Below are positions 53,517-64,000 of a stretch of 64,000 nt of DNA, piece after piece. The translations under genes and the position numbers were made by a program. Origin of the DNA: Verrucomicrobiaceae bacterium (GTDB lineage Bacteria; Verrucomicrobiota; Verrucomicrobiia; Verrucomicrobiales; Akkermansiaceae); NCBI GenBank assembly GCA_027485615.1, contig JAIXQS010000038.1, positions 1 to 64,000 on the forward strand. Reading direction: 5' to 3'. The notes below the pieces were generated by a model that saw only the letters and a program-made list of their open reading frames with translations, ran no database searches and was not told the origin of the DNA. Position 1 is the stretch's first letter. Every line of letters begins with the position of its first letter.

Positions 53517-54293
53517 ATGACGACCGAAGATAAGAAACCCAGCCCGGCACAGGAGCATCCGCTCGCGAACATCCTGATCAATGTGCTCATTCCCGTGCTG
53601 GCACTCAGCTACCTCAGCAAGGATCCCGCGATGCAGGACGAGGCGAAGCTCTGGCACATCGGGCCGCTCAAGGCGCTCTTCGTGGCGCTGGTTTTCCCCA
53701 TCGGCTACGGCGTGTGGTTTTTCGTGAAGACGCGGAAGATGAATTTCTTCTCGAGCCTTGGATTCTTTTCCGTGCTGCTGACGGGCGGGCTGACGCTTTT
53801 CCTCTGGAACAAGGACGGCACGGTGAAGGAGCACGCGGCGGTGCTTTTCGGGCTCAAGGAGGCATCGATCCCCTTCGTGCTCGGCATCGCGATCATCGCG
53901 TCGCATTGGTCGAAGACCCCGCTGCTGCGGACTTTCCTCTACAACGACACGATCTTCGACATTCCGAAGATCGAGAAAAAGGTCGGCGAACTGGGGCGGG
54001 AAGCTGACTACCACAAGGTGCTGATGAACGCGACCTTGCTGTTTGCGGTGTCGTTTTTCCTCAGCACGCTGATGAACTTCGGCTTGGCTCTGTGGTTCCT
54101 CGGCGACCTGAATCACGCCGCCACGGATGCGCGCGAGATCTACAACGAAAAGGTCGCGAAAATCACCGGCTGGGGCTTCCTGGTGATCGGCGTGCCCATC
54201 ATGGCGTTCCTTTTCATCACCCTCAAGAAACTGCTCAGCGGCTTGAGGGGAATCACCGGATTCAGCGACGATGATCTGATGATGCCGCGCTGA
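53517..54293 (+). CDS. VC0807-like integral membrane protein
   Basis: This is a 258-residue membrane protein with five or six hydrophobic segments (ANILINVLIPVLALSYLSK; PLKALFVALVFPIGYGVWFF; FFSVLLTGGLTLFLW; ASIPFVLGIAIIASHW; LFAVSFFLSTLMNFGLALWF; GFLVIGVPIMAFLF). The pattern fits the VC0807 family, related to intracellular septation protein A; no function is established. It is convergent with phhB, with 1 nt between stops. Confidence 0.7.
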   Translation: MTTEDKKPSPAQEHPLANILINVLIPVLALSYLSKDPAMQDEAKLWHIGPLKALFVALVFPIGYGVWFFVKTRKMNFFSSLGFFSVLLTGGLTLFLWNKDGTVKEHAAVLFGLKEASIPFVLGIAIIASHWSKTPLLRTFLYNDTIFDIPKIEKKVGELGREADYHKVLMNATLLFAVSFFLSTLMNFGLALWFLGDLNHAATDAREIYNEKVAKITGWGFLVIGVPIMAFLFITLKKLLSGLRGITGFSDDDLMMPR

Positions 54294-54294
54294 C

Positions 54295-54579
54295 TCAATC
54301 GACGAGGTTGTCGATGCGCTGTGCGAGCTGGATGTCGAGTGCGGTGACGCCGCCGACATCGTGGGTCGTCAGCTTGAGCGTGACCTTGGTGTGCTTGATC
54401 ATGATGTCGGGGTGGTGCTGCGCCTCCTCGGAGATCTCGCCCACGTCGTTGACGAAATCGATCCCTTCCATGAATTCCTCGAACTCGATGGTGCGGGTGA
54501 TGTGTTTCTTCTCGTATTCCCACTCGGGGCATTTCTTGAGTGCGGAGGTGAGTTCTTCTTCTTCTAGCAATTCGGACAT
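54295..54579 (-). CDS. phhB: 4a-hydroxytetrahydrobiopterin dehydratase
   Basis: This is a 94-residue pterin-4a-carbinolamine dehydratase. The family segment HPDIMIKHTKVTLKLTTHDV with the preceding EISEEAQHH gives the catalytic His residues (H in AQHHPD and the HT/HD pair). It regenerates tetrahydrobiopterin after aromatic amino-acid hydroxylation or acts as a stimulator elsewhere. No hydroxylase is in the window. Start ATG 54579 gives the standard length; an extension to 54759 adds non-homologous residues. Confidence 0.92.
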   Translation of the reverse strand: MSELLEEEELTSALKKCPEWEYEKKHITRTIEFEEFMEGIDFVNDVGEISEEAQHHPDIMIKHTKVTLKLTTHDVGGVTALDIQLAQRIDNLVD

Positions 54580-54703
54580 GTGAGGGATGGTTCGTTGAAA
54601 CTTTCGGCGGAAGATTGGAGGCACGCTTTCAGGGTTGGCAAGCCCGTCTTTGATCTTTTGTGAAAAATCATTTCCGCCTTCACGACGTGGAGGAGGATGC
54701 GGT

Positions 54704-54732
54704 TTGCATAGCGCCGCACGCCGTGCAAGGCT
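54704..54732 (+). promoter_or_regulatory. Candidate promoter of lipoprotein gene at 54739
   Basis: TTGCAT (54704-54709), 17 nt and AAGGCT (54727-54732) lie 35 nt before the ATG; leaderless transcript predicted. Confidence 0.3.
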
Positions 54733-54738
54733 TCGGGC

Positions 54739-55179
54739 ATGAGACAATCCCTTGCGCACCTGTTTTCGGTTTCCTTATTCCTGCTGGTAGCTTCGTGCGC
54801 CCCATCGACGCCGGAGGCGCGCATCGCCGAGAAGCCGTTGGCCTTCGAGAAACTCAGCGATGACCACAAGGAGCTGGTGCAGCGCGGGGAGATCGGGAAA
54901 GGAATGGATATGTCGGCCGTCGCGCTGGCCTGGGGGAACCCTTCGAACCGGATGGAGGGCTTCAACGGGAAGGGACGGACGGATCGCTGGGAATACATCG
55001 GCACGCAACCCGTGATGATGAACACGTTTTACGACAGCTACCGGTACGACCGGATTCACCCGCACAGATATGCCCGCGCGGGAGGCTACTACGGGACGGA
55101 GATCGTGTATGTCCCTTACCGCAAAAGCACCGTGTGGTTCGTCGGCGGAAAGGTGACCGAGTGGGAGCGCTTGAAATGA
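54739..55179 (+). CDS. Hypothetical small lipoprotein
   Basis: This is 146 residues with a lipoprotein signal (LFSVSLFLLVASCAPS; lipobox VASC). The mature part has a BamE/SmpA-like feel: KGMDMSAVALAWGNPSNRME, then DRWEYIG and YRKSTVWFVGGKVTEWERL. It is likely an outer-membrane-associated lipoprotein. It precedes an L,D-transpeptidase gene by 61 nt on the same strand, fitting an envelope role. Function unknown. Confidence 0.75.
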   Translation: MRQSLAHLFSVSLFLLVASCAPSTPEARIAEKPLAFEKLSDDHKELVQRGEIGKGMDMSAVALAWGNPSNRMEGFNGKGRTDRWEYIGTQPVMMNTFYDSYRYDRIHPHRYARAGGYYGTEIVYVPYRKSTVWFVGGKVTEWERLK

Positions 55180-55204
55180 CCGGGTGTTTTCCGAAAACGG
55201 ATCC

Positions 55205-55233
55205 TTGCCGTCCGCAACGGGGTGTCTCTGAAT
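55205..55233 (+). promoter_or_regulatory. Candidate promoter of the L,D-transpeptidase gene
   Basis: TTGCCG (55205-55210), 17 nt and CTGAAT (55228-55233) lie 36 nt before GTG 55241. Confidence 0.35.
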
Positions 55234-55240
55234 CGAAGTC

Positions 55241-55924
55241 GTGAAAGCGAAAGCAGTATTGGCCGTGTTGCTGGGAGCGGTGGGCGTGGCGGCATCTTCC
55301 TCCTGCTCGATGAAAGCCGCAAGCGGCGGAGCACTGGCGGCCTACCAAGCGTATGACCGCCCGGCTACGCCGCCGCAAAACCCGGCGGCGGTGCAGGTAA
55401 AGGTATCGCTCAGCAAGCAGCGGGCTTATGTGATGGAGGACGGGGAAATGCTGATGGTGATGCCCGTTTCCATAGGCAAGCCGGATTCGCCGACACCCAC
55501 CGGCACATTCAGGATTTCCAGAAAAGAGCACAAGCACAGGGACAGCACCCGCGGCTACGCCTACAGGGGAAAACGGGTGCACAAATGCGGCCTGGAAAAC
55601 AAGCCCTCCGGCTGGTCGTTCAAGGGCACGCCGATGCCCTACTGGTGCGAGTTCAAGCCGTCCTACGGGTTCCACACCGGTTGGGTGCGGCACTCGCCGT
55701 GCACCAGCGACGGCTGCATCCGCATGCATGAGAACCTCGCTCCCAAGTTTTTCCGCATGGTATCGGTCGGCACGCCTGTGAACATCTCCTACTCGCAGCC
55801 CGAGGATGCGCGATGGGCTTACATCCCGCTGCACCCCGACGCGGGGCCGCTGCCCGATCACCCCACATCCATGTATCTGGGAGACGGCTATTTCACGCAT
55901 CACAAGACACCGGTGTTCGACTGA
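55241..55924 (+). CDS. L,D-transpeptidase (YkuD) lipoprotein
   Basis: This is 227 residues starting at GTG. The signal (MKAKAVLAVLLGAVGVAASS) ends at SSSCSMK, a likely lipobox. The YkuD domain has VKVSLSKQRAYVMEDGEMLM, then PVSIGKPDSPTPTGTFRI, and the active-site segment FHTGWVRHSPCTSDGCIRMH with catalytic Cys in SDGC and His upstream. It would make 3-3 peptidoglycan cross-links or attach proteins to the wall. The upstream lipoprotein gene is probably co-functional. Confidence 0.92.
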   Translation: MKAKAVLAVLLGAVGVAASSSCSMKAASGGALAAYQAYDRPATPPQNPAAVQVKVSLSKQRAYVMEDGEMLMVMPVSIGKPDSPTPTGTFRISRKEHKHRDSTRGYAYRGKRVHKCGLENKPSGWSFKGTPMPYWCEFKPSYGFHTGWVRHSPCTSDGCIRMHENLAPKFFRMVSVGTPVNISYSQPEDARWAYIPLHPDAGPLPDHPTSMYLGDGYFTHHKTPVFD

Positions 55925-56042
55925 CGCCCCTCCGCAGGGTTCCTCCACGAGGGAAGACTCAAGGAGATTGAACCAATGACATAGGTATCCGGGATGATTT
56001 CCCAAATGTAAGAACCCTGCGCCCCTCCGTTTCGGAAAGCGC

Positions 56043-56071
56043 TTGCATCGCGGGGCGAAAGACTGCCTTGT
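56043..56071 (+). promoter_or_regulatory. Candidate promoter of the MYG1-like gene
   Basis: TTGCAT (56043-56048) lies 38 nt before the ATG; the -10 (CCTTGT, 56066-56071) is weak. Confidence 0.25.
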
Positions 56072-56080
56072 CCTCCGCTT

Positions 56081-56953
56081 ATGAGTAAATATTCCGAAAT
56101 CCTGACCCATCCGGGCAGCGCACATAAGGACGAGTTCCTGGCTTGCTGCCTACTGGTCGCCGTCCATGAAGCGCCGATTTTCCGGCGCGAACCCACGCAG
56201 GCGGATCTGGACAATCCGTCCATGGCGGTGGTCGATGTCGGCGGTGAGGACGAAGCGGCGCGCGGGAATTTCGACCACCACCAGTTCCCCAAGGATCATC
56301 CCCCGATCTGCTCGCTGAGCCTGGTGCTGATGGATCTCGGGCTCTATGATGATGCGCGCATGTATTGCGATTGGCTTGAAGTGGCGGAATGGTTCGATAC
56401 CCGCGGGCCGGTGGAAACGGCGGCGTGGCTCGGCGTGGAGCGGACGCTGCTGGCGAAGCTGAATTCCACCGTGGATCTCACGCTGTTGAGGCGCTTCGCC
56501 GGGATGTCGGAAATCCGCCCCGGTGAGCCGATGTGGGAGGTGATGCGCTGGGTTGGTGCGGACCTGATCGGATACCTGAGATCCCTGCGTGAAAAGCTCA
56601 ACGAGATCGAGCGGCTGAGCGAGATCTGGGAAATGAGCCACGAGGCGGGGGATTTCAGGGTGCTGTTCCTGCCCCGGGCGGAAAACTTCTCGGAGGATGC
56701 CTCGGCGGGCTTGGCGCGCTACGCATCGGGCTTGCCGGAGGACAGGCAGGTGGTCGCGATGGTTTACCCGGACCGGCGCGGAACCGGCTTCGCGCTGTCC
56801 CGTTTCAACGACGACCTGCGCATGGATTTCACGCGCATCTCCCCGGAAGCCGATGTCCATTTCGCGCACGCGCGGGGCTTTGTGGCGAAAACCAGCGCCA
56901 CCGATCTCGGACGGATCAGGGACTTGCTGGCGATGAGCCGGGTGAGTCTATAA
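56081..56953 (+). CDS. MYG1-family (UPF0160) metal-dependent hydrolase-like protein
   Basis: This is a 290-residue protein of the MYG1/UPF0160 family, related to DHH phosphoesterases. Family features are ILTHPGSAHKDEFLACCLLV, VVDVGGEDEAARGNFDHHQF (Asp-His-His motif) and the C-terminal VVAMVYPDRRGTGFALSRFN. Eukaryotic MYG1 is a 3'-5' RNA exonuclease; the bacterial role is unknown. It is cytoplasmic, with no signal peptide. Confidence 0.88.
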   Translation: MSKYSEILTHPGSAHKDEFLACCLLVAVHEAPIFRREPTQADLDNPSMAVVDVGGEDEAARGNFDHHQFPKDHPPICSLSLVLMDLGLYDDARMYCDWLEVAEWFDTRGPVETAAWLGVERTLLAKLNSTVDLTLLRRFAGMSEIRPGEPMWEVMRWVGADLIGYLRSLREKLNEIERLSEIWEMSHEAGDFRVLFLPRAENFSEDASAGLARYASGLPEDRQVVAMVYPDRRGTGFALSRFNDDLRMDFTRISPEADVHFAHARGFVAKTSATDLGRIRDLLAMSRVSL

Positions 56954-57070
56954 ACCCTGCCCCTGCCGCGGTTTCGCTGTCTTTTGTCTGGACAATGATT
57001 TCCCGTTTGGGATCGTTTGCATAACCAATCAGTCGTTCATGCATCGCAAACACAGCAAGATAATATCCTT

Positions 57071-57784
57071 ATGCATATCAAAATATTAATCTTTTTATTA
57101 ATTAGCCTACCGGCTTTCGGCGAAGGCATGCCGATTCTGGAGGAGAGGGATTGGACATCCAAGGATGGCCGCATAATCAAGGCCACTCTCGTAAAAGCAG
57201 AGGATTTGAACATCACCCTGAAAATGGCCAAGGATAACAAATTACATACCTTGGAGTTGGATAGGCTCTCCGACAAGGACAGGGTTTTGGTTTCCGATAG
57301 CCAGGACAAGGCAGCGAAGATCATCGAAGATCATAACTCGAAGGTGAAAAACGTGGTTTGGCATTCTGATTGGCATTTTCGGAATTCATATTCAGGGGTT
57401 CCCGAGCTAGAAATCGACGAACTCCGTTTGGTTTATTATTTTGGAAAGGCGCGGGAGCTTGGTGTTTTCGCCGTAAAGTTTACTCCTGATAAGTTCAAAT
57501 TGGAAACGAACAAGGTCAATGCCTTGATGATGGGATCGGAAGGTTTTGCTGTTAAGGCAAAAACCGCGGCAGAATGGTCGTTCATTGAGTCCGGAAAGGA
57601 TCTCAACGTCCGGCCCAAAGTGATGAGCAAGGGATCATCGGACAGGGTGGAAGTAGCCTATGCGAATGGCGTCACAGTCCGCCTTCTTTTCGCAAACGGA
57701 AGAAGCATTACGGAGGGCGAGATGGGTATCCAGAAGTGCTTGATCCTAGCGCTGGAGAATTTTGAACCGCGCTTCGCAAGGTGA
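57071..57784 (+). CDS. Secreted SHD1-domain hypothetical protein
   Basis: This is 237 residues with a signal peptide (MHIKILIFLLISLPAFG). The N-terminal module RDWTSKDGRIIKATLVKAED, followed by HTLELDRLSDKDRVL, is the SHD1/SLA1-homology-like beta domain seen on many Verrucomicrobial exported proteins (compare the start of the 11811-14798 protein). The remainder has no recognised domain. Composition is more AT-rich than the neighbours. The start at 57071 is chosen for the signal peptide; the frame is open to 57017. Confidence 0.7.
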   Translation: MHIKILIFLLISLPAFGEGMPILEERDWTSKDGRIIKATLVKAEDLNITLKMAKDNKLHTLELDRLSDKDRVLVSDSQDKAAKIIEDHNSKVKNVVWHSDWHFRNSYSGVPELEIDELRLVYYFGKARELGVFAVKFTPDKFKLETNKVNALMMGSEGFAVKAKTAAEWSFIESGKDLNVRPKVMSKGSSDRVEVAYANGVTVRLLFANGRSITEGEMGIQKCLILALENFEPRFAR

Positions 57785-57850
57785 TGCGTTTCGCATCCGT
57801 TCGTCTTTTTTGATTCTTGATATCATGCGCTTGTCACGCAGCCTCTCAGC

Positions 57851-58897
57851 ATGAGTTTGATCTCCATTTCCAGCCTCAAGGAGCAGGCGAACGACGTGCC
57901 GCTAATCGCTTCCGTGGCGGCGCAGCTCCAATCCCGCGCGGTGAAGACGACGAAGGGTGGCAAGCCGTATTTCGATCTCGCTTTCGCCGATTCGACGGGC
58001 TCTCTGAGCCTGAAGGTTTGGTCGGACACGCCCTTGCACACGGAGGCGGAGAAGCTGCCGCTGCAATCCATCGTGCGGCTGGACGGCGAGTGGACGCAGA
58101 ACCAATACGGCATCAACGGCAGCGATGTGAACTGGGCTTTGCTAGCCGATGAGGCGGTCGCGGATTTTCTCGCGGGGGATCCCGCGGTGCGGAGAAAGCA
58201 GGAGGCGGATTACGCGGAAATCCTGCGGCTTTGCGGCGCGATCACCGATCCGCGTTTGAAAAAACTCTGCGACCATTTTTTCGGGACGATGGGAGACCGC
58301 TTCCGCAGGACGGCGGCGGCGCGGAAAAACCACCACGCGCGGCGCGGCGGGCTGGTCGAGCATGTGGCGCAGATGATGCGCTCGGCGGAAGCGATCTGCG
58401 GCGTGTATCCTGAGCTGAACCGCGACCTGATGCTTGCCGGAGTGCTTTTCCACGATTGCGGGAAACTCTGGGAAAACACGTATCCCGAGGACGGCTTCTC
58501 CCAGATCCACTCTCTCCATGGCGAGATGCTGGGGCATATCCCGCTCGGCATCGAGCTGGTGAACAAGCTGTGGCGCGACCTACTAGACGCATCGGAGTTC
58601 GAGGCGTTTTCCAAATGCAAGCCGAGCACCGAGGAAGTCCGCGTGCACCTGCTCCACCTGATCGGCAGCCATCACGGGCAGCTGGAGTTCGGCTCGCCCG
58701 TTTTGCCGAAAACACCGGAGGCCTACGCGCTGCATTACATCGACAACCTCGACGCGAAGATGGAGATGCTGCGCGACGCCTATTCGCAAGCCGCCGAGGT
58801 CGCGCCGGGGATCTACGACCGGGTATTCCCCCTTTCCGCCAACCTCATCCGGCCGCTGCGCGATTACGAGGAGGCCCCCTCAGAAGACCAGCAGTGA
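57851..58897 (+). CDS. OB-fold plus HD-domain protein, YhaM-like 3'-5' exoribonuclease
   Basis: This is 348 residues. An N-terminal OB-fold (about 20-100; VKTTKGGKPYFDLAFADSTG) precedes an HD domain with RGGLVEHVAQMMRSAEAICG, LAGVLFHDCGKLWENTY (HD pair in FHDCGK), HGEMLGHIPLGIELV and LLHLIGSHHGQLEFGSP. These are the metal ligands of the YhaM/KOG group, which degrades RNA or single-stranded DNA. Length matches. The 3' end overlaps the convergent SLC13 gene by 18 bp. Confidence 0.88.
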   Translation: MSLISISSLKEQANDVPLIASVAAQLQSRAVKTTKGGKPYFDLAFADSTGSLSLKVWSDTPLHTEAEKLPLQSIVRLDGEWTQNQYGINGSDVNWALLADEAVADFLAGDPAVRRKQEADYAEILRLCGAITDPRLKKLCDHFFGTMGDRFRRTAAARKNHHARRGGLVEHVAQMMRSAEAICGVYPELNRDLMLAGVLFHDCGKLWENTYPEDGFSQIHSLHGEMLGHIPLGIELVNKLWRDLLDASEFEAFSKCKPSTEEVRVHLLHLIGSHHGQLEFGSPVLPKTPEAYALHYIDNLDAKMEMLRDAYSQAAEVAPGIYDRVFPLSANLIRPLRDYEEAPSEDQQ

Positions 58898-60238
58898 AAG
58901 CGCGGTGATCAGCGCGATGAAAACGAGATCCATGACGAAGCCGACCCGGATCATCGAGCGCTGGGGGATCCGGCCCGTGGCGAAAACCATGGCGTTGGGA
59001 GGCGTGCCGACGGGAAGCATGAAACCGCACGAAGCGGCGATGGTAACCGGCAAAACCAGCTTCGCGGCATCGACATCAAACTCCAGCGCCATGGCCATGA
59101 AGATCGGCACGAGCAGGGCGGCGGTCGCGGTGTTGCTGGCAAGTTCGGACAGGAAGATCACGAACGCGACCACACCCATGATGATCGCCCACAAAGGCCA
59201 TTCGCCCATCGCCCCGCCGAGCAGGCGCGCCATGAAAAGGCTCGCGCCGGAGGAGCCGAGGACGGCACTGAGCGCTAGCCCGCCGCCGAAAAGCAGCAGC
59301 ACGCCCCAATCCGTGCCGTTCTGGATTTCCCGCCAACTGACCACCTTCGTAGCGGAAAGCAGGGCGACGGCGGCGAGCGCGACCCAGGTATCGGTGTCGG
59401 TGATCCCAAGCAACGCGCCAAGCTGTGCGCCGAAAATCCAGCCAAGGGCGGTCGCAGCGAAGATCACGAGCGTGATGATGCGCGGCCGGGTGAATTCGAA
59501 ACGCTCCGCCTCGACCTCGATTTTGCAAGTTCCCTCGTTGGAAGGTTTCAGCATGAAATGGAGCGTGGCGACCATCGCCGGAAGCAGGACAATCACGGCC
59601 GGGATCCCGAATTTCAGCCACTCGGAAAAGGAAACGCCGAGAGCCTTCGCGGCGATCCCGTTCGGCGGGCTGCCGACGAGAGTGCCGAGGCCGCCGATGC
59701 TCGCCGCGTAGGCGACGCCGAGGAGCAGGAAATAGGTATTCTTTGGGGCGGAACCTTCCGTCGGGAACTGGCTGATGATGCCGAGCGCGAGGGGGATCAT
59801 CATTGCCGTCGTGGCGGTGTTGCTCACCCACATCGAGAGCAACGCAGTGCCTGCAAAAAGGTAGAGGCAAACGGGGACGAATTTCCCTTTTCCCAGCCTT
59901 GCCAGCTTCGCGGCCAGCCATCGGTCGATTCCCTGCGCCGAAAGCGCCGAAGCGAGGGCGAAGCCGCCGAAGAATAGGAAAATGGGCGGCGCGGCGAAGG
60001 ACGCGAGGGAGTCCTTCACCCCGGCAAGCCCCATCACTGCGGCGATCACCGGCACGAGAAGCGCGGTGATGGCGAGCGGCAGCGCCTCGGTCATCCAGAG
60101 GAAAGCGATGCCGACGAAAAGCGCCAACCCCAGCCGCACCGTCCCCGCGTCCAAGCCCTCCAGCGCCCGCGCCTCCGGAGCCGACGGCAGGAAAAACGCG
60201 ATGGCGAGCATGAGCGCGATACCGGCAGCGACTTTCAT
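58880..60238 (-). CDS. SLC13/DASS-family sodium-coupled anion transporter
   Basis: This is a 452-residue polytopic membrane protein with 11-12 hydrophobic segments. It has both SNT signature loops that bind Na+ and the carboxylate: WVSNTATTAMMIPLALGI and LASNTATAALLVPIFMAM, and the final PVGTPPNAMVFATGRIP motif of the family. It likely imports dicarboxylates (succinate, malate) or sulfate; the substrate cannot be fixed from sequence. It is divergent from the transglutaminase-like gene. Confidence 0.93.
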   Translation of the reverse strand: MKVAAGIALMLAIAFFLPSAPEARALEGLDAGTVRLGLALFVGIAFLWMTEALPLAITALLVPVIAAVMGLAGVKDSLASFAAPPIFLFFGGFALASALSAQGIDRWLAAKLARLGKGKFVPVCLYLFAGTALLSMWVSNTATTAMMIPLALGIISQFPTEGSAPKNTYFLLLGVAYAASIGGLGTLVGSPPNGIAAKALGVSFSEWLKFGIPAVIVLLPAMVATLHFMLKPSNEGTCKIEVEAERFEFTRPRIITLVIFAATALGWIFGAQLGALLGITDTDTWVALAAVALLSATKVVSWREIQNGTDWGVLLLFGGGLALSAVLGSSGASLFMARLLGGAMGEWPLWAIIMGVVAFVIFLSELASNTATAALLVPIFMAMALEFDVDAAKLVLPVTIAASCGFMLPVGTPPNAMVFATGRIPQRSMIRVGFVMDLVFIALITALSLLVF

Positions 60239-60368
60239 TTCCGCGATTCAAAACCGGAAATCCGCCCGCGAACATAAAATTTGACGATCAGGCAAGCGGC
60301 ATGCCGCATTTCACACATCCTCAGAGCTTGACGCCTACGTCCCGCCCCGATACCTACCGGATGTAATC

Positions 60369-60398
60369 GGAATGGGTAAACAATAGGAATGGGTAAAC
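60369..60398 (+). repeat. Duplicated translation-start segment
   Basis: GGAATGGGTAAAC occurs at 60369-60381 and again at 60386-60398, period 17. The first copy opens a four-codon frame (ATG at 60372, stop TAG); the second begins the transglutaminase-like gene. Confidence 0.6.
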
Positions 60399-61624
60399 GC
60401 ACACAACTACGGAAAGAAGCCGCCGAATCCAGCGCTCGGGATGATCGGTCGTCTCCCCTATTGCCGATGATCGTCTCCGCCGCGGTGGCGGCCTGCCTGA
60501 CCGCCATCATCTTTGTTGCCGCCGCCCGCGGCAAGGGAGCGCGGAGCGCCGCGGAACCACAATCCCTTTCAAAATCAGACCCGGCGTCGGAAATGATCGA
60601 AAAGCTGCTGGGCGTTCCGGAACTCTCTGAGGATGCCGATATCGCCTTGCTCAACCTTAAGGTGACTCCCGGAATGCCGGCCGAGGAAAAAGACCAAATC
60701 ATCGCGGATTGCCTGAAAACCCTCGACCTATGGGCAAAAACCGTGGCTCTGCAGACCGGTAAAAACCTGCATCGCTATCACGCCAACCCGCAGGAATTCA
60801 AAAGCGAGGCCGAATGGCGGCTCGCGATGATGTGCACCATCCTCGGCCAGGATTTCAGGTTGCGCTATGATCCCCGGCTCACCTCCACGGAGCGGCAGAA
60901 TGCCCCGAACCAACAGTTTTTCGCGAACCCCCATTCCGTTTTCCTCACCGGTTGCCTCGGCGAAGACCGTATCGGTTCCTGCGCTTCCCTGCCCGTCCTT
61001 TACGTCGCCATCGGCAGGCGCATCGGATATCCGATGCACCTTGTCGCCGCGAAGGAACATCTCTTCGCCCGTTGGGACGACGGCCATGGCACCCGCGTGA
61101 ACCTCGAGGCGGCCAACGCCGGCGGCTTCACCAGCCACCCCGATTCTTATTACCGCACCTGGCCGAAGCCCATCTCACCCGGAGAGGAAAAATCAGGCGG
61201 TTACCTCCGGAATCTGACAGCGGAGGAATCCCTCGCCGTATTCCTGACGACCCGCGCGGCTTGCCTGCAGGCGGGTGGCGCGACGATGCCCGCGATCAAC
61301 TCCGCCGCAGCAGCATACCGTCTGGCTCCCAACCTCGGCGGAATAAGTCTCGCGCTCAACACAACCCTAGTCAACACGCCCTCGGATTGGAACGCCGCTG
61401 CGGAACGCGGACTGCGTGAACTTGAGGAAACCATGATGCATAATCGGCGCATGGCCGAGCGAATGTCTGTGAACCCCCAACTTCCCAACCCGCACTTGCC
61501 GGGTCACCCCCAGCCGGGATATCCGCAACAAGTGTTTCCGCATCCCGCCGCAATTCCCCAACCTCACCACACAACGCATCCCGGTTCTTACCAAGGATAC
61601 CAAAATCCCCATTCTTCCCGTTGA
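60389..61624 (+). CDS. Transglutaminase-like (SirB1-type) membrane-anchored protein
   Basis: This is 411 residues with one N-terminal transmembrane segment (about 25-48; MIVSAAVAACLTAIIFVAAA). The core has the transglutaminase-like triad region: RIGSCASLPVLYVAIGRRIG (catalytic Cys in GSCAS) and LVAAKEHLFARWDDGHG (His, Asp), as in the COG2912 SirB1 group. The C-terminal ~60 residues are a Pro/His/Gln-rich low-complexity tail (PHLPGHPQPGYPQQVFPHPA). The substrate is unknown. The tail is partly duplicated 1.4 kb downstream in front of the second mini-RHS gene, so it belongs to the same duplicated unit. Confidence 0.75.
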   Translation: MGKRTQLRKEAAESSARDDRSSPLLPMIVSAAVAACLTAIIFVAAARGKGARSAAEPQSLSKSDPASEMIEKLLGVPELSEDADIALLNLKVTPGMPAEEKDQIIADCLKTLDLWAKTVALQTGKNLHRYHANPQEFKSEAEWRLAMMCTILGQDFRLRYDPRLTSTERQNAPNQQFFANPHSVFLTGCLGEDRIGSCASLPVLYVAIGRRIGYPMHLVAAKEHLFARWDDGHGTRVNLEAANAGGFTSHPDSYYRTWPKPISPGEEKSGGYLRNLTAEESLAVFLTTRAACLQAGGATMPAINSAAAAYRLAPNLGGISLALNTTLVNTPSDWNAAAERGLRELEETMMHNRRMAERMSVNPQLPNPHLPGHPQPGYPQQVFPHPAAIPQPHHTTHPGSYQGYQNPHSSR

Positions 61625-61838
61625 ACGCCCACCCACAGAAAGCTAAACCATGAAAATCATACCCCCGTTGTTCAAAATTCTCTTCTTCCTACTCGCCCTC
61701 TCCAACTTCGCACATGCATTCTACGATCCCGGACACGGGAGATGGGTTTCGCGCGATCCAATCCAGGAGCAAGGCGGGGTCAATTTGTATGGGTTTGTCG
61801 GAAATGATGCAGTAAGCAAAGTTGATTTGATCGGACTT
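61445..61838 (+). repeat. Duplicated unit, copy 1
   Basis: This contains the end of the transglutaminase-like gene, the intergenic leader, signal peptide and RHS core, and is repeated, diverged, at 62884-63275 about 1.44 kb away. The leader just before both mini-RHS start codons is near identical (CGCCCACCCACAGAAAGC). Confidence 0.75.
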
Positions 61839-62396
61839 AGTCCATATATTTCGGGAGGGTTGGAAACTTTTTCTGATGGGCTGCCGGGTTTCCGTCTTGA
61901 ATTACAGCAACATCTCACCCCAGGAGAATACTACATACAGATTATTACAGTGACCGAAACGTTCAAGAACTGTGATGGAACTACCGACGCCAAACAAGGT
62001 CTGATAAGAGACATGTGGTATCCTTTCGATCAAGAAGGTTTTCCACAGTATGGTGGTGTGACAATGCTTACCGATATTATTTCAAAATTTAACATCACCG
62101 AAAAGTGTTCATATGGATTTTTAGCAGAAGCAGAGCTTTACAAGGTTCCCAAAATTGAATTTCAACTTTATGACCTAAACATGACTACCTCTGGCGCTGG
62201 AGCAAGTTCAAGCACGGGTATGTCTATCATACCAATAGTTCCCCCTGGTTCTGCTGGAAATTTTTACGAAGGAATACCTGGCCGCACCCTCGAAGCCAAG
62301 TATTCAATAGGGTATTCATTTCATGACAGTTGTAACGGTGATGGCATCGTCACAGAATTCTACGAAATTGGCGGCGATCTTAAGGAAGGTTCATAG
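61650..62396 (+). CDS. Mini-RHS protein 1: signal peptide, RHS core, variable C-terminus
   Basis: This is 248 residues. Residues 1-23 are a Sec signal (MKIIPPLFKILFFLLALSNF, then AHA). Residues 24-63 are the RHS-repeat-associated core normally found near the C-terminus of huge RHS/YD proteins: YDPGHGRWVSRDPIQEQGG and NLYGFVGNDAVSKVDLIGL. From residue 64 on, the sequence is unlike any family I know (LSPYISGGLETFSDGLPGFR) and more AT-rich. In RHS toxins this place holds the variable toxin domain, so this is probably a shell-less, secreted polymorphic effector. Its nuclease, protease or other activity cannot be told. The partner gene starts 2 nt after the stop. Confidence 0.75.
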   Translation: MKIIPPLFKILFFLLALSNFAHAFYDPGHGRWVSRDPIQEQGGVNLYGFVGNDAVSKVDLIGLSPYISGGLETFSDGLPGFRLELQQHLTPGEYYIQIITVTETFKNCDGTTDAKQGLIRDMWYPFDQEGFPQYGGVTMLTDIISKFNITEKCSYGFLAEAELYKVPKIEFQLYDLNMTTSGAGASSSTGMSIIPIVPPGSAGNFYEGIPGRTLEAKYSIGYSFHDSCNGDGIVTEFYEIGGDLKEGS

Positions 62397-62398
62397 AT

Positions 62399-62851
62399 AT
62401 GCGTAAATTACTATTAATTTTATTATTAACCGGATGCACACTAGGCGCAGAAGAAAAAGAGAGCAAATCAAGGTATGATTTACTGTTCAGCATCTTCGAG
62501 AAATTTGTACCTGAATCATCACTATTAGTAGAGACAGGAATAGCCTTTGACGGGACTTGGGGTCGAATACCGTTGTCTCGCCTCGCTTATTGGGCTGCTG
62601 AAATGAGACCTGCTGATCAAGATGAAATGCAAATAGCCCGATCTTACGTCAAATCCAAAATACCGGAAGTTAGGATAATTGCTTCTTGGGCAGCTCTCGA
62701 TGCGTTAGGAATTAAAAGAAATGAATATCCAGATGATGTTGCACCGAAATGGGCTGGACACGAAATAAATACAGATGAGCATGAAAAATTCATGCTTTTT
62801 TTTAATAAATGCCTAGGAGATCATAGAGATTCGCATTTATTAAAAAATTAA
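62399..62851 (+). CDS. Putative lipoprotein partner (candidate immunity protein 1)
   Basis: This is 150 residues beginning with a lipoprotein signal (MRKLLLILLLTGCTLGAEEK; lipobox LTGC). The mature protein is small and helical-looking (YDLLFSIFEKFVPESSLLVE; KIPEVRIIASWAALDALGIK, faintly HEAT-like) with no known domain. It follows mini-RHS gene 1 by 2 nt, is strongly AT-rich and is probably co-transcribed. By position and export to the periplasm it is a candidate immunity protein, an inference from the toxin-immunity arrangement only. Confidence 0.65.
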   Translation: MRKLLLILLLTGCTLGAEEKESKSRYDLLFSIFEKFVPESSLLVETGIAFDGTWGRIPLSRLAYWAAEMRPADQDEMQIARSYVKSKIPEVRIIASWAALDALGIKRNEYPDDVAPKWAGHEINTDEHEKFMLFFNKCLGDHRDSHLLKN

Positions 62852-62883
62852 AATATTCTAGATACATCAAATTAATTTATTGC

Positions 62884-63072
62884 CGACGGATGGCCGAATA
62901 AATGCCCATGAGTGCCCAACATCCTTTACCTATTTTTCCGAGTCCGCAACTCCCAGATATCCCGCAGCGTGGATTTTCAAATCCCGCCACAATTCACCAA
63001 CCTCACCACATACCAATCCCGATTCTCACCAGGGATAAAAAAATCCCATTCTCCCCGTTAAACGCCCACCCA
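62884..63072 (+). pseudogene. Degenerate copy of the transglutaminase gene 3' end
   Basis: This reads RRMAE, stop, then a Pro/His-rich string (QLPDIPQRGFSNPATIHQPH) that aligns with the last ~60 codons of the gene at 60389-61624, including the shared RRMAE start and the PHxAxI-QPHH segment. Stop codons and indels show it is a non-coding relic carried along with mini-RHS gene 2. Confidence 0.7.
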
Positions 63073-63275
63073 CAGAAAGCAAAAACATGAAAACCATACC
63101 GCCGTTGTTCAAAATTCTCCTCTTCCTACTCGCCCTATCCAATTTCACGCATGCATTCTACGATCCCGGACAGGGACGATGGGTTTCCCGCGACCCGATC
63201 CAAGAGCAGGGCGGTGTTCATTTGTATGGGTTTGTGGTGAATGATGGAGTAAATAAATTGGACTACTTGGGATTT
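62884..63275 (+). repeat. Duplicated unit, copy 2
   Basis: This is the counterpart of 61445-61838. Similarity ends abruptly after the RHS core, where the two variable C-terminal domains begin. Confidence 0.75.
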
Positions 63276-63902
63276 GTTGCTGCAGATGAAAAATTAATGA
63301 TCGAGACTGTTCATGAAGGGGCAATAAATGCCCACCGTAGCGCTGAAGATGAGTATCTGAATCAACTTAAAAGTGAAAATCCTAATGTTATTACACCTGG
63401 ATTCAACAAAAACCGAGAATACAAGCCAGCATCACCAAAAGAGTATGGCGGCAAAGTTTGTGAGAATTGTGAAATCAAGGACGATGGAAGTAAGGTGTAC
63501 ACATACTATTTGACAAGTAAGTCCGGGGCATGGCCATTACTGCGCGGTTTCGCTGATATACACCTCGGAAGTTCGCCTGATTGTAAAGATGGAGATAAAG
63601 ATGTGGCATTCTGGCACACTCACCCCAGCGAACTCGTCAGGGAGCTTGTCGACAAGAAAGCACGCGAAAAGAAATATAAGTATTATTGGTCAGCAAGCAA
63701 CAGTTTCAGCGATGCTGACAAAAGATTTACATCAAATAAAATGCAAAATCCTGACGGATTGCCACTATTCGTAACTTATCGCGCAGCCCCTAGTTACCGT
63801 GAATGGACATACGTAACAGACAAACATCCCGGCGGTAGAGTTCGGGAGTCAGGCGCTAATCCCATAGAATGGCTCGAATTCCAAGATGGCATAGCGCCAT
63901 AA
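63087..63902 (+). CDS. Mini-RHS protein 2 with JAB/DUF4329-like C-terminus
   Basis: This is 271 residues. Signal peptide and RHS core (residues 1-63) match mini-RHS 1 at 51 of 63 positions: YDPGQGRWVSRDPIQEQGG, then LYGFVVNDGVNKLDYLG. The C-terminal domain differs completely: DVAFWHTHPSELV (HxHP at 177-180) and SNSFSDADKRF (S-x-x-D at 208-211) make a JAMM/DUF4329-like metalloprotease motif, although the spacing of about 28 residues is longer than in many JAMM proteins. A CENCEIK pair could bind metal. It is likely a secreted effector, perhaps a peptidase or isopeptidase. A signal-peptide-bearing gene starts 12 nt later. Confidence 0.75.
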   Translation: MKTIPPLFKILLFLLALSNFTHAFYDPGQGRWVSRDPIQEQGGVHLYGFVVNDGVNKLDYLGFVAADEKLMIETVHEGAINAHRSAEDEYLNQLKSENPNVITPGFNKNREYKPASPKEYGGKVCENCEIKDDGSKVYTYYLTSKSGAWPLLRGFADIHLGSSPDCKDGDKDVAFWHTHPSELVRELVDKKAREKKYKYYWSASNSFSDADKRFTSNKMQNPDGLPLFVTYRAAPSYREWTYVTDKHPGGRVRESGANPIEWLEFQDGIAP

Positions 63903-63914
63903 TTAAAATTGACT

Positions 63915-64000
63915 ATGTTAACATATTTTCATAGTGTTAGTTTTTTTATTTATCTGGCACTGCCATTACATTTTGTGCATGCTGATTTGAAGCTTGATCC
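63915..64000 (+). CDS. Partial exported protein, candidate immunity protein 2
   Basis: Only the first 28 codons are in the window. They read as a signal peptide (MLTYFHSVSFFIYLALPLHF, then VHADLK), 12 nt after the stop of mini-RHS gene 2. By analogy with the gene at 62399 it may be the exported partner of that protein. The gene continues beyond the window. Confidence 0.55.
   Translation, partial: MLTYFHSVSFFIYLALPLHFVHADLKLD

What the first reader, a model, noticed from the sequence alone, without database searches (positions are those of the whole stretch)
61650..64000. Tandem mini-RHS cassettes: a shell-less polymorphic toxin-immunity array
Two neighbouring genes share a leader, a Sec signal peptide and an RHS core (51 of 63 residues identical) but then diverge completely in the C-terminal domain, and each is followed closely (2 and 12 nt) by a small gene with its own signal peptide or lipobox. 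In classical RHS/YD toxins the core stands directly before a variable toxin tip followed by an immunity gene. Here the 1000-plus-residue shell is missing and a signal peptide replaces it, so the tip would be exported by Sec as a short protein. An alternative is that these are RHS orphan tips decayed from a larger gene, but both frames are open, have start codons and keep export signals. I do not know of a described system of this exact form.
Basis: partly seen in the sequence, partly recalled or inferred. Interest (0 to 1): 0.85.

Follow-up and report, generated by a model that had tools for sequence, protein, structure and literature searches.

The report
Exported mini-RHS toxins with transglutaminase partner
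Two neighbouring genes in a Verrucomicrobia-type bacterium encode short secreted proteins that join a Sec signal peptide, a 40-residue stub of the RHS toxin scaffold and a swappable tip, each with its own presumed protection gene; related bacteria carry the same layout next to a dedicated transglutaminase-like enzyme, so this looks like a compact, previously undescribed version of bacterial polymorphic toxins.

Summary
The host is a Verrucomicrobiota (Akkermansiaceae/Prosthecobacter-type) genome. At 61650-62396 and 63087-63902 lie two genes (51/63 identical leader residues) encoding a signal peptide fused at its AxA site to the last ~40 residues of the RHS core, then unrelated tips; a small gene with an export signal follows each. 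They are not decayed orphans: about 25 genes of this form occur in other genomes, leader and core are under purifying selection (dN/dS about 0.06-0.2), and tips plus small genes behave as swappable modules. Against sister genome G198, DNA identity stops at the end of the half-core and resumes after the last small gene. The second tip and its small gene recur together on a YD-shell RHS gene and on orphan tips.

It is rare (11/244 family genomes) yet adjoins this gene type at 18 of 19 informative loci.

Best reading: a Sec-exported, shell-less polymorphic toxin system with a dedicated extracytoplasmic transglutaminase-type partner. Toxicity and the enzyme's role are inferred. New variant of a known kind.

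The parts
60389..61624 (+). Transglutaminase-like (Transglut_core2, PF13369) protein, 411 aa, N-terminal membrane helix about residues 24-48, TG domain plus TPR-like helices, Pro/His-rich tail; partner gene 26 nt before mini-RHS 1
   Evidence: PF13369 E 3.6e-6 above cut-off, 13 of 14 family members hit it; Cys198 and His224 invariant and Asp231/Glu240 nearly invariant in 14 homologues; model matches menin Z 15.7, TGase 4xz7 Z 11.2, LapG Z 7.5; adjacent to mini-RHS at 18 of 19 informative loci
61518..61824 (+). Direct repeat copy A: TG gene tail, intergenic stretch, leader, most of half-core
   Evidence: local alignment with 62956-63260
61650..62396 (+). Mini-RHS 1 (248 aa): signal peptide, RHS half-core, variable tip CTD1
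61650..61718 (+). Signal peptide of mini-RHS 1 (MKIIPPLFKILFFLLALSNFAHA), predicted cleavage AHA|FYDP
   Evidence: sequence; A23 invariant in 14 relatives; no SignalP available
61719..61838 (+). RHS half-core of mini-RHS 1 (FYDPGHGRWVSRDPI...DLIGL)
   Evidence: TIGR03696 positions 32-76; dN/dS about 0.06-0.14
61839..62393 (+). CTD1, variable tip, no known family; found only in this genome among 244
62399..62851 (+). IM1, candidate exported immunity protein (150 aa), signal peptide/lipobox LLLTGC
   Evidence: homologues not found
62872..63021 (+). Remnant of the TG gene 3' end in front of cassette 2 (duplication scar)
   Evidence: BLAST hit to TG residues 349-398 with one stop, E 4.7e-5
62956..63260 (+). 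Direct repeat copy B
63087..63902 (+). Mini-RHS 2 (271 aa): signal peptide (63087-63155), half-core (63156-63272), tip CTD2
63273..63899 (+). CTD2, Tox-JAB-2/DUF4329-like tip (E, HTH, S, D pattern)
   Evidence: DUF4329 E 0.017, below the gathering score; homologues up to E 0.0037; H177/H179 invariant in 8; on other RHS scaffolds at about 50% identity
63915..64000 (+). IM2, candidate immunity protein with signal peptide; continues past the window to contig 64628
   Evidence: co-occurs with CTD2 in G210, G152, G129

Best explanation
A Sec-exported, shell-less polymorphic toxin/immunity locus. SHOWN by sequence: a TM-anchored transglutaminase-like (TG) gene is followed by short genes whose products consist of a signal peptide cut just before the last ~40 residues of the RHS core, then a variable tip; each is followed by a small gene, mostly with an export signal; tip plus small gene form a module that is replaced as a unit exactly at the core/tip boundary and is shared with conventional RHS genes. 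INFERRED: the tip is an antibacterial effector; it leaves the cytoplasm through Sec as a small protein; the exported small gene protects the producer's own envelope and kin; the TG partner, sitting outside the inner membrane with an intact Cys-His active site, acts on the exported mini-RHS, either linking it to an envelope or surface component or cutting it, thus replacing the display and release jobs that the missing shell does in ordinary RHS proteins. Tandem cassettes arise by homologous recombination through the constant TG-tail/leader/half-core segment, so every displaced cassette keeps a start codon and signal peptide and can still be made and exported, unlike classical orphan tips.
For: About 25 genes of this form across the phylum. 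TG in 11/244 family genomes versus RHS core in 152/244; genome co-occurrence of TG and SP-mini-RHS Fisher p 1e-9 to 1e-11 (naive test); TG directly upstream at 16 loci and on the other side at 2 (G190, G496), of 19 informative, in different families and classes. Leader/core dN/dS 0.17 between the two window copies, 0.12-0.13 versus G198; TG domain 0.10. Orthologous locus in G198: about 82% DNA identity ends at 61828 and resumes at 64637. CTD2/IM2 together on a YD-shell RHS (G152), an orphan tip (G210) and a decayed orphan (G129); G166 pair on two G172 RHS genes, CTD_G067 on an 1803-aa RHS frame in G026. TG active-site Cys/His invariant, TG fold. Precedent for a dedicated cysteine transpeptidase beside a Sec-exported RHS toxin: SrtB with S. 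suis WapA (PMC12704120).
Against: No toxicity, immunity or enzyme test exists. Most tips match no known toxin family; the DUF4329 match of CTD2 is below cut-off and its model is poor (pLDDT 63, no structural match). Exported small genes are equally common behind conventional RHS genes here. TG divergence does not track half-core divergence (Mantel rho 0.11, 1042/5000), so a specific TG-tag interaction is unsupported. No outer-membrane exit or target-entry route identified. CTD1 and IM1 have no homologues, so that pair is untested.
Confidence: 0.68

Rival explanations
1. Decaying or stored orphan RHS tips: fragments left by C-terminal displacement that serve only as an immunity repertoire or tip reservoir for full-length RHS genes.
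For: Tip/immunity modules are shared with full-length RHS and orphan tips; a duplication scar with a TG tail remnant lies before cassette 2; this genome has a full-length RHS with its own signal peptide (C144); classical orphan tips are common in these genomes.
Against: Own ATG and signal peptide in every intact member; purifying selection on leader and half-core; the SP junction is always at the same core position, whereas orphan tips keep YYGYRYYDP and lack a signal; linkage to an intact TG gene across classes.
Confidence: 0.14
2. A secreted, non-toxic system: the TG enzyme and variable mini-RHS proteins form a surface or adhesion display under diversifying selection, and the small downstream genes are chaperones or partners rather than immunity proteins.
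For: No toxicity evidence; many tips without a recognised enzyme domain; transglutaminases often crosslink surface proteins (general knowledge).
Against: Tip plus small gene recur as a module on conventional RHS proteins, whose tips are generally toxins (PMC3482391, PMC3150448); by eye some tips carry hydrolase motifs (HTH in CTD2, HExxH in G190; Zn-PLC-like G270 only at E 0.098).
Confidence: 0.13
3. The TG gene is a bystander conserved at this site for other reasons; the mini-RHS works alone (compatible with the toxin reading, rival to the partnership).
For: TG and half-core do not co-diverge; in G190 and G496 the gene order differs.
Against: Rare TG family adjacent to this rare gene type at 18/19 informative loci in unrelated genomic settings; even duplicated cassettes carry the TG tail, although that follows from the recombination breakpoint.
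Confidence: 0.2

Closest known systems
Classical RHS/YD polymorphic toxins (Rhs, WapA) with rhsI immunity
   Same: RHS core directly before a variable tip followed by an immunity-like gene; tip/immunity modules interchangeable
   Different: No YD shell, only the second half of the core; 210-420 aa in all; signal peptide fused to the core; TG partner gene
Orphan rhs-CT/rhsI and cdiA-CT/cdiI modules (PMC3150448)
   Same: Tandem tip/immunity modules with a core remnant at the 5' end
   Different: Orphan cdiA-CTs generally lack translation start signals and the EC93 one lacks a signal sequence (PMC3150448); here each cassette has both, under purifying selection
Sec-exported WapA of Streptococcus suis with SrtB sortase and SecF-like protein (PMC12704120)
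   Same: Sec-exported RHS toxin beside a dedicated cysteine transpeptidase
   Different: WapA is very large with a shell and wall-binding region; enzyme is a sortase, not a transglutaminase; Gram-positive
Inactive N-terminal transglutaminase domain of RHS polymorphic toxins (PMC3482391)
   Same: TG-fold domain after a signal peptide/TM associated with RHS toxins
   Different: There fused to the toxin and lacking triad residues; here a separate gene with conserved Cys and His
Short TIGR03696 proteins (<400 aa) known, from memory, in Pseudomonas putida
   Same: RHS core in the N-terminal half of a short protein with an unrelated C-terminus
   Different: From memory those lack a Sec signal and a TG neighbour; not tested here
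MafB/MafI of Neisseria (from memory)
   Same: Signal peptide, short constant domain, polymorphic tip, immunity gene, tandem cassettes
   Different: Constant domain is DUF1020, not RHS core; no TG partner

Membership tests
Polymorphic toxin systems (Zhang et al. 2012) | Constant N-terminal part, variable C-terminal domain, immunity gene directly downstream | tested here: met
   (layout only)
Polymorphic toxin systems (Zhang et al. 2012) | Tip and downstream gene co-vary and move as a module | tested here: met
   CTD2/IM2 and the G166 pair recur together on other RHS genes; orthologous swap versus G198; not testable for CTD1/IM1 (no homologues)
Polymorphic toxin systems (Zhang et al. 2012) | Tip toxic, neighbour neutralises it | not testable with these tools
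   needs expression assay
RHS core protein (TIGR03696) | Match to the core model above cut-off | tested here: met
   43.1 and 40.1 bits against 32.5, second half of the model only
Classical RHS/YD shell toxin | YD-repeat shell before the core | tested here: not met
   core begins right after the signal peptide
Orphan rhs tip | No own start or export signal | tested here: not met
   ATG and signal peptide in both genes and relatives
Tox-JAB-2 / DUF4329 (CTD2) | Profile match and E, H[ST]H, S, D residues | tested here: inconclusive
   E 0.017 below cut-off, relatives to 0.0037; both His invariant in 8 relatives; model too poor
Transglutaminase-like superfamily (60389-61624) | TG-core profile, Cys-His-acid active site, TG fold | tested here: met
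   PF13369 above cut-off; Cys198, His224 invariant, Asp231/Glu240 nearly so (which acid completes the triad not determined); menin, TGase, PNGase, LapG fold matches
Transglutaminase-like superfamily (60389-61624) | Transamidase or protease activity | not testable with these tools
   needs biochemistry

The most novel reading that the evidence does not exclude
A Gram-negative counterpart of sortase display for toxins: a dedicated periplasmic transglutaminase recognises an RHS half-core as an N-terminal tag and covalently attaches, or cuts, small Sec-exported antibacterial proteins, so that any new tip inserted behind the tag is displayed without a shell or a specialised secretion machine.
Probability: 0.25. 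Interest if true: 0.85.

Novelty: new variant of a known kind. Interest (0 to 1): 0.66.

Why it matters
RHS toxins are normally explained by their shell: it encapsulates the tip, and the core cuts it free. Proteins that keep only the last 40 residues of the core, under selection and with their own export signal, show that the core stub has a function without the shell. The rare transglutaminase-like gene that accompanies them gives a concrete candidate for that function, and the small size makes the whole system expressible and testable in laboratory E. coli. It also suggests why displaced cassettes in such arrays need not be silent.

Tried and rejected
Assembly artefact: rejected (mid-contig; independent genome with the same locus). 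Orphan decay: rejected on dN/dS and conserved leader. 'Exported immunity is special to mini-RHS': rejected, same frequency behind conventional RHS. TG-tag co-divergence: tested, not supported. Structure of mini-RHS 2: low confidence, no matches. Anti-phage defence families: none convincing (best E 0.052). TG on plasmids: only weak rhizobial TG hits, <40% identity over about a quarter to a third of the protein. TG-TPR proteins in G355, G557, G529 are distant hits and not linked to RHS. A second search for YRDLETG-type leaders without TG: among the 29 best loci inspected all were conventional RHS except those already known to have TG.

Full report
Observation. The core match covers only the second half of TIGR03696. 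The signal peptide ends in A-x-A exactly where the core's FYDPxxGRW begins; this junction is the same in the relatives (A23 invariant in 14). The two cassettes also share about 130 nt upstream of their start codons, which in cassette 1 is the 3' end of the preceding gene and in cassette 2 a remnant of it.

Distribution. The window lies on contig C47 (87.6 kb) of a 3.45-Mb genome whose named relatives are Prosthecobacter and Akkermansiaceae MAGs. In 244 genomes of the family the RHS core is common (152 genomes), but most hits are long shell proteins or orphan tips that keep the full YYGYRYYDP core and have no signal. The signal-peptide type is a distinct minority: in the family G000 (3 genes), G198, G222, G210 (4), G190, G166 (2), G067 (2), G152 and one broken copy in G172; elsewhere in the phylum G534 (4), G373, G434, G451, G394, G270, G496, G459. 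Tandem cassettes occur in G000, G210 and G534.

The neglected neighbour. The gene 26 nt upstream, 60389-61624, belongs to Transglut_core2, with a predicted membrane helix or, in relatives, a signal peptide or lipobox by eye. It is found in 11 of 244 family genomes and 13 of 388 phylum genomes (the three TPR-rich ones G355, G557, G529 are distant). Counting loci with enough sequence, it lies directly upstream of an SP-mini-RHS gene in 16, on the far side of the small gene in 2 (G190, G496), and is absent in 1 (the broken G172 copy); four more loci are cut by contig ends. TG genes without mini-RHS in G200, G218, G059 and G010 are short or incomplete. Genome-level co-occurrence: Fisher p 1e-9 to 1e-11, counted by hand from the searches and ignoring phylogeny. 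Cys198 and His224 are invariant and Asp231 and Glu240 nearly so in 14 sequences down to 25% identity. The model of the TG region is confident (mostly >90 pLDDT); it matches menin (itself transglutaminase-like, from general knowledge) at Z 15.7 over 244 residues, a TGase (4xz7) at 11.2, S. pyogenes TglA 9.2, PNGase about 8 and the periplasmic protease LapG 7.5; the lower Z values are only supportive.

Selection and exchange. Leader plus half-core show dN/dS 0.17 between the two window copies and 0.12-0.13 against G198; half-core alone 0.06-0.14; TG domain 0.10 (short sequences, dS partly saturated; one other pair, G222 versus one G210 copy, gives 0.47). The locus is orthologous in G198: DNA identity runs through 54027-61828, stops at the end of the half-core, and resumes at 64637, right after IM2, so the two cassettes of G000 stand where G198 has one unrelated tip and small gene. 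CTD2 with IM2 recurs at about 50%/41-48% identity on an orphan tip in G210 and on an RHS gene with YD shell in G152, and decayed in G129. The tip and small gene of G166 C223 recur on two RHS genes of G172 (tip E 5e-56 and 4e-46, small gene E 1e-12 and 2e-5), and the tip of G067 C59 on an 1803-residue RHS frame in G026. Only three weak similarities exist among the tips of the SP members. CTD1 and IM1 have no detectable relatives.

Small genes. By a simple hydrophobicity rule 17 of 22 have an N-terminal export signal or membrane helix; but so do 56 of 76 genes behind conventional RHS genes, against 25 of 86 behind other genes. This is a trait of RHS loci in the phylum, fitting effectors that are dangerous on the outer side of the inner membrane; it does not separate the mini form. 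The full-length RHS of this genome also starts with a signal-peptide-like segment.

Tips. CTD2 has the E, HTH, S, D pattern given for Tox-JAB-2/DUF4329 (PMC3482391), with a sub-threshold profile match. By eye G190 has an HExxH motif; G270 resembles Zn-dependent phospholipase C weakly (E 0.098). Most are unrecognised.

Mechanism. Shown: anatomy, selection, modularity, TG linkage. Inferred: toxicity, Sec export, envelope-located immunity, TG acting on the exported product. The nearest functional precedent is S. suis WapA, exported by Sec and encoded with a sortase (PMC12704120). Polymorphic RHS toxins with a fused, inactive TG domain after the signal peptide are known (PMC3482391); here the TG is a separate gene with conserved Cys and His. 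A prediction of tight TG/half-core co-divergence failed, so the TG substrate is open.

Novelty. Polymorphic RHS-type toxin logic is known, and short RHS-core proteins and Sec-exported RHS proteins have precedents. No paper found in the searched library describes the signal-peptide/half-core fusion or its transglutaminase partner (open-access text only). I file it as a new variant of a known kind.

Noticed in passing
L172 and L173 (G346:C1:486000-525000): Some two dozen short RHS tips in one orientation in 39 kb, with conventional core and no signal peptide: a very large orphan-tip array.
   Followed up: partly
Conventional RHS genes in fetched loci L006-L171: In this phylum 56 of 76 small genes behind conventional RHS genes carry an N-terminal export signal or TM helix, versus 25 of 86 behind other genes, suggesting envelope-acting tips in general.
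   Followed up: partly
window 60389-61624: Best structural match of this extracytoplasmic bacterial transglutaminase-like protein is human menin (Z 15.7 over 244 residues).
   Followed up: partly
L161:5147-5677: The gene after the mini-RHS of G394 looks by eye like a type I signal peptidase rather than an immunity gene.
   Followed up: no
own genome contigs C57, C66, C6, C144, C179: RHS cores sit at or near contig ends, so assembly breaks at RHS repeats and RHS genes are probably undercounted.
   Followed up: no
window 60185-60289: A 105-bp stretch upstream of the TG gene also occurs (85%) in G198 at the far end of its cassette (C31:20612-20716); purpose unknown.
   Followed up: no
L049:6978-7245 (G172:C64): A broken mini-RHS copy follows a small exported gene whose Pro-rich end resembles a TG tail, possibly a fusion made by cassette recombination.
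   Followed up: no
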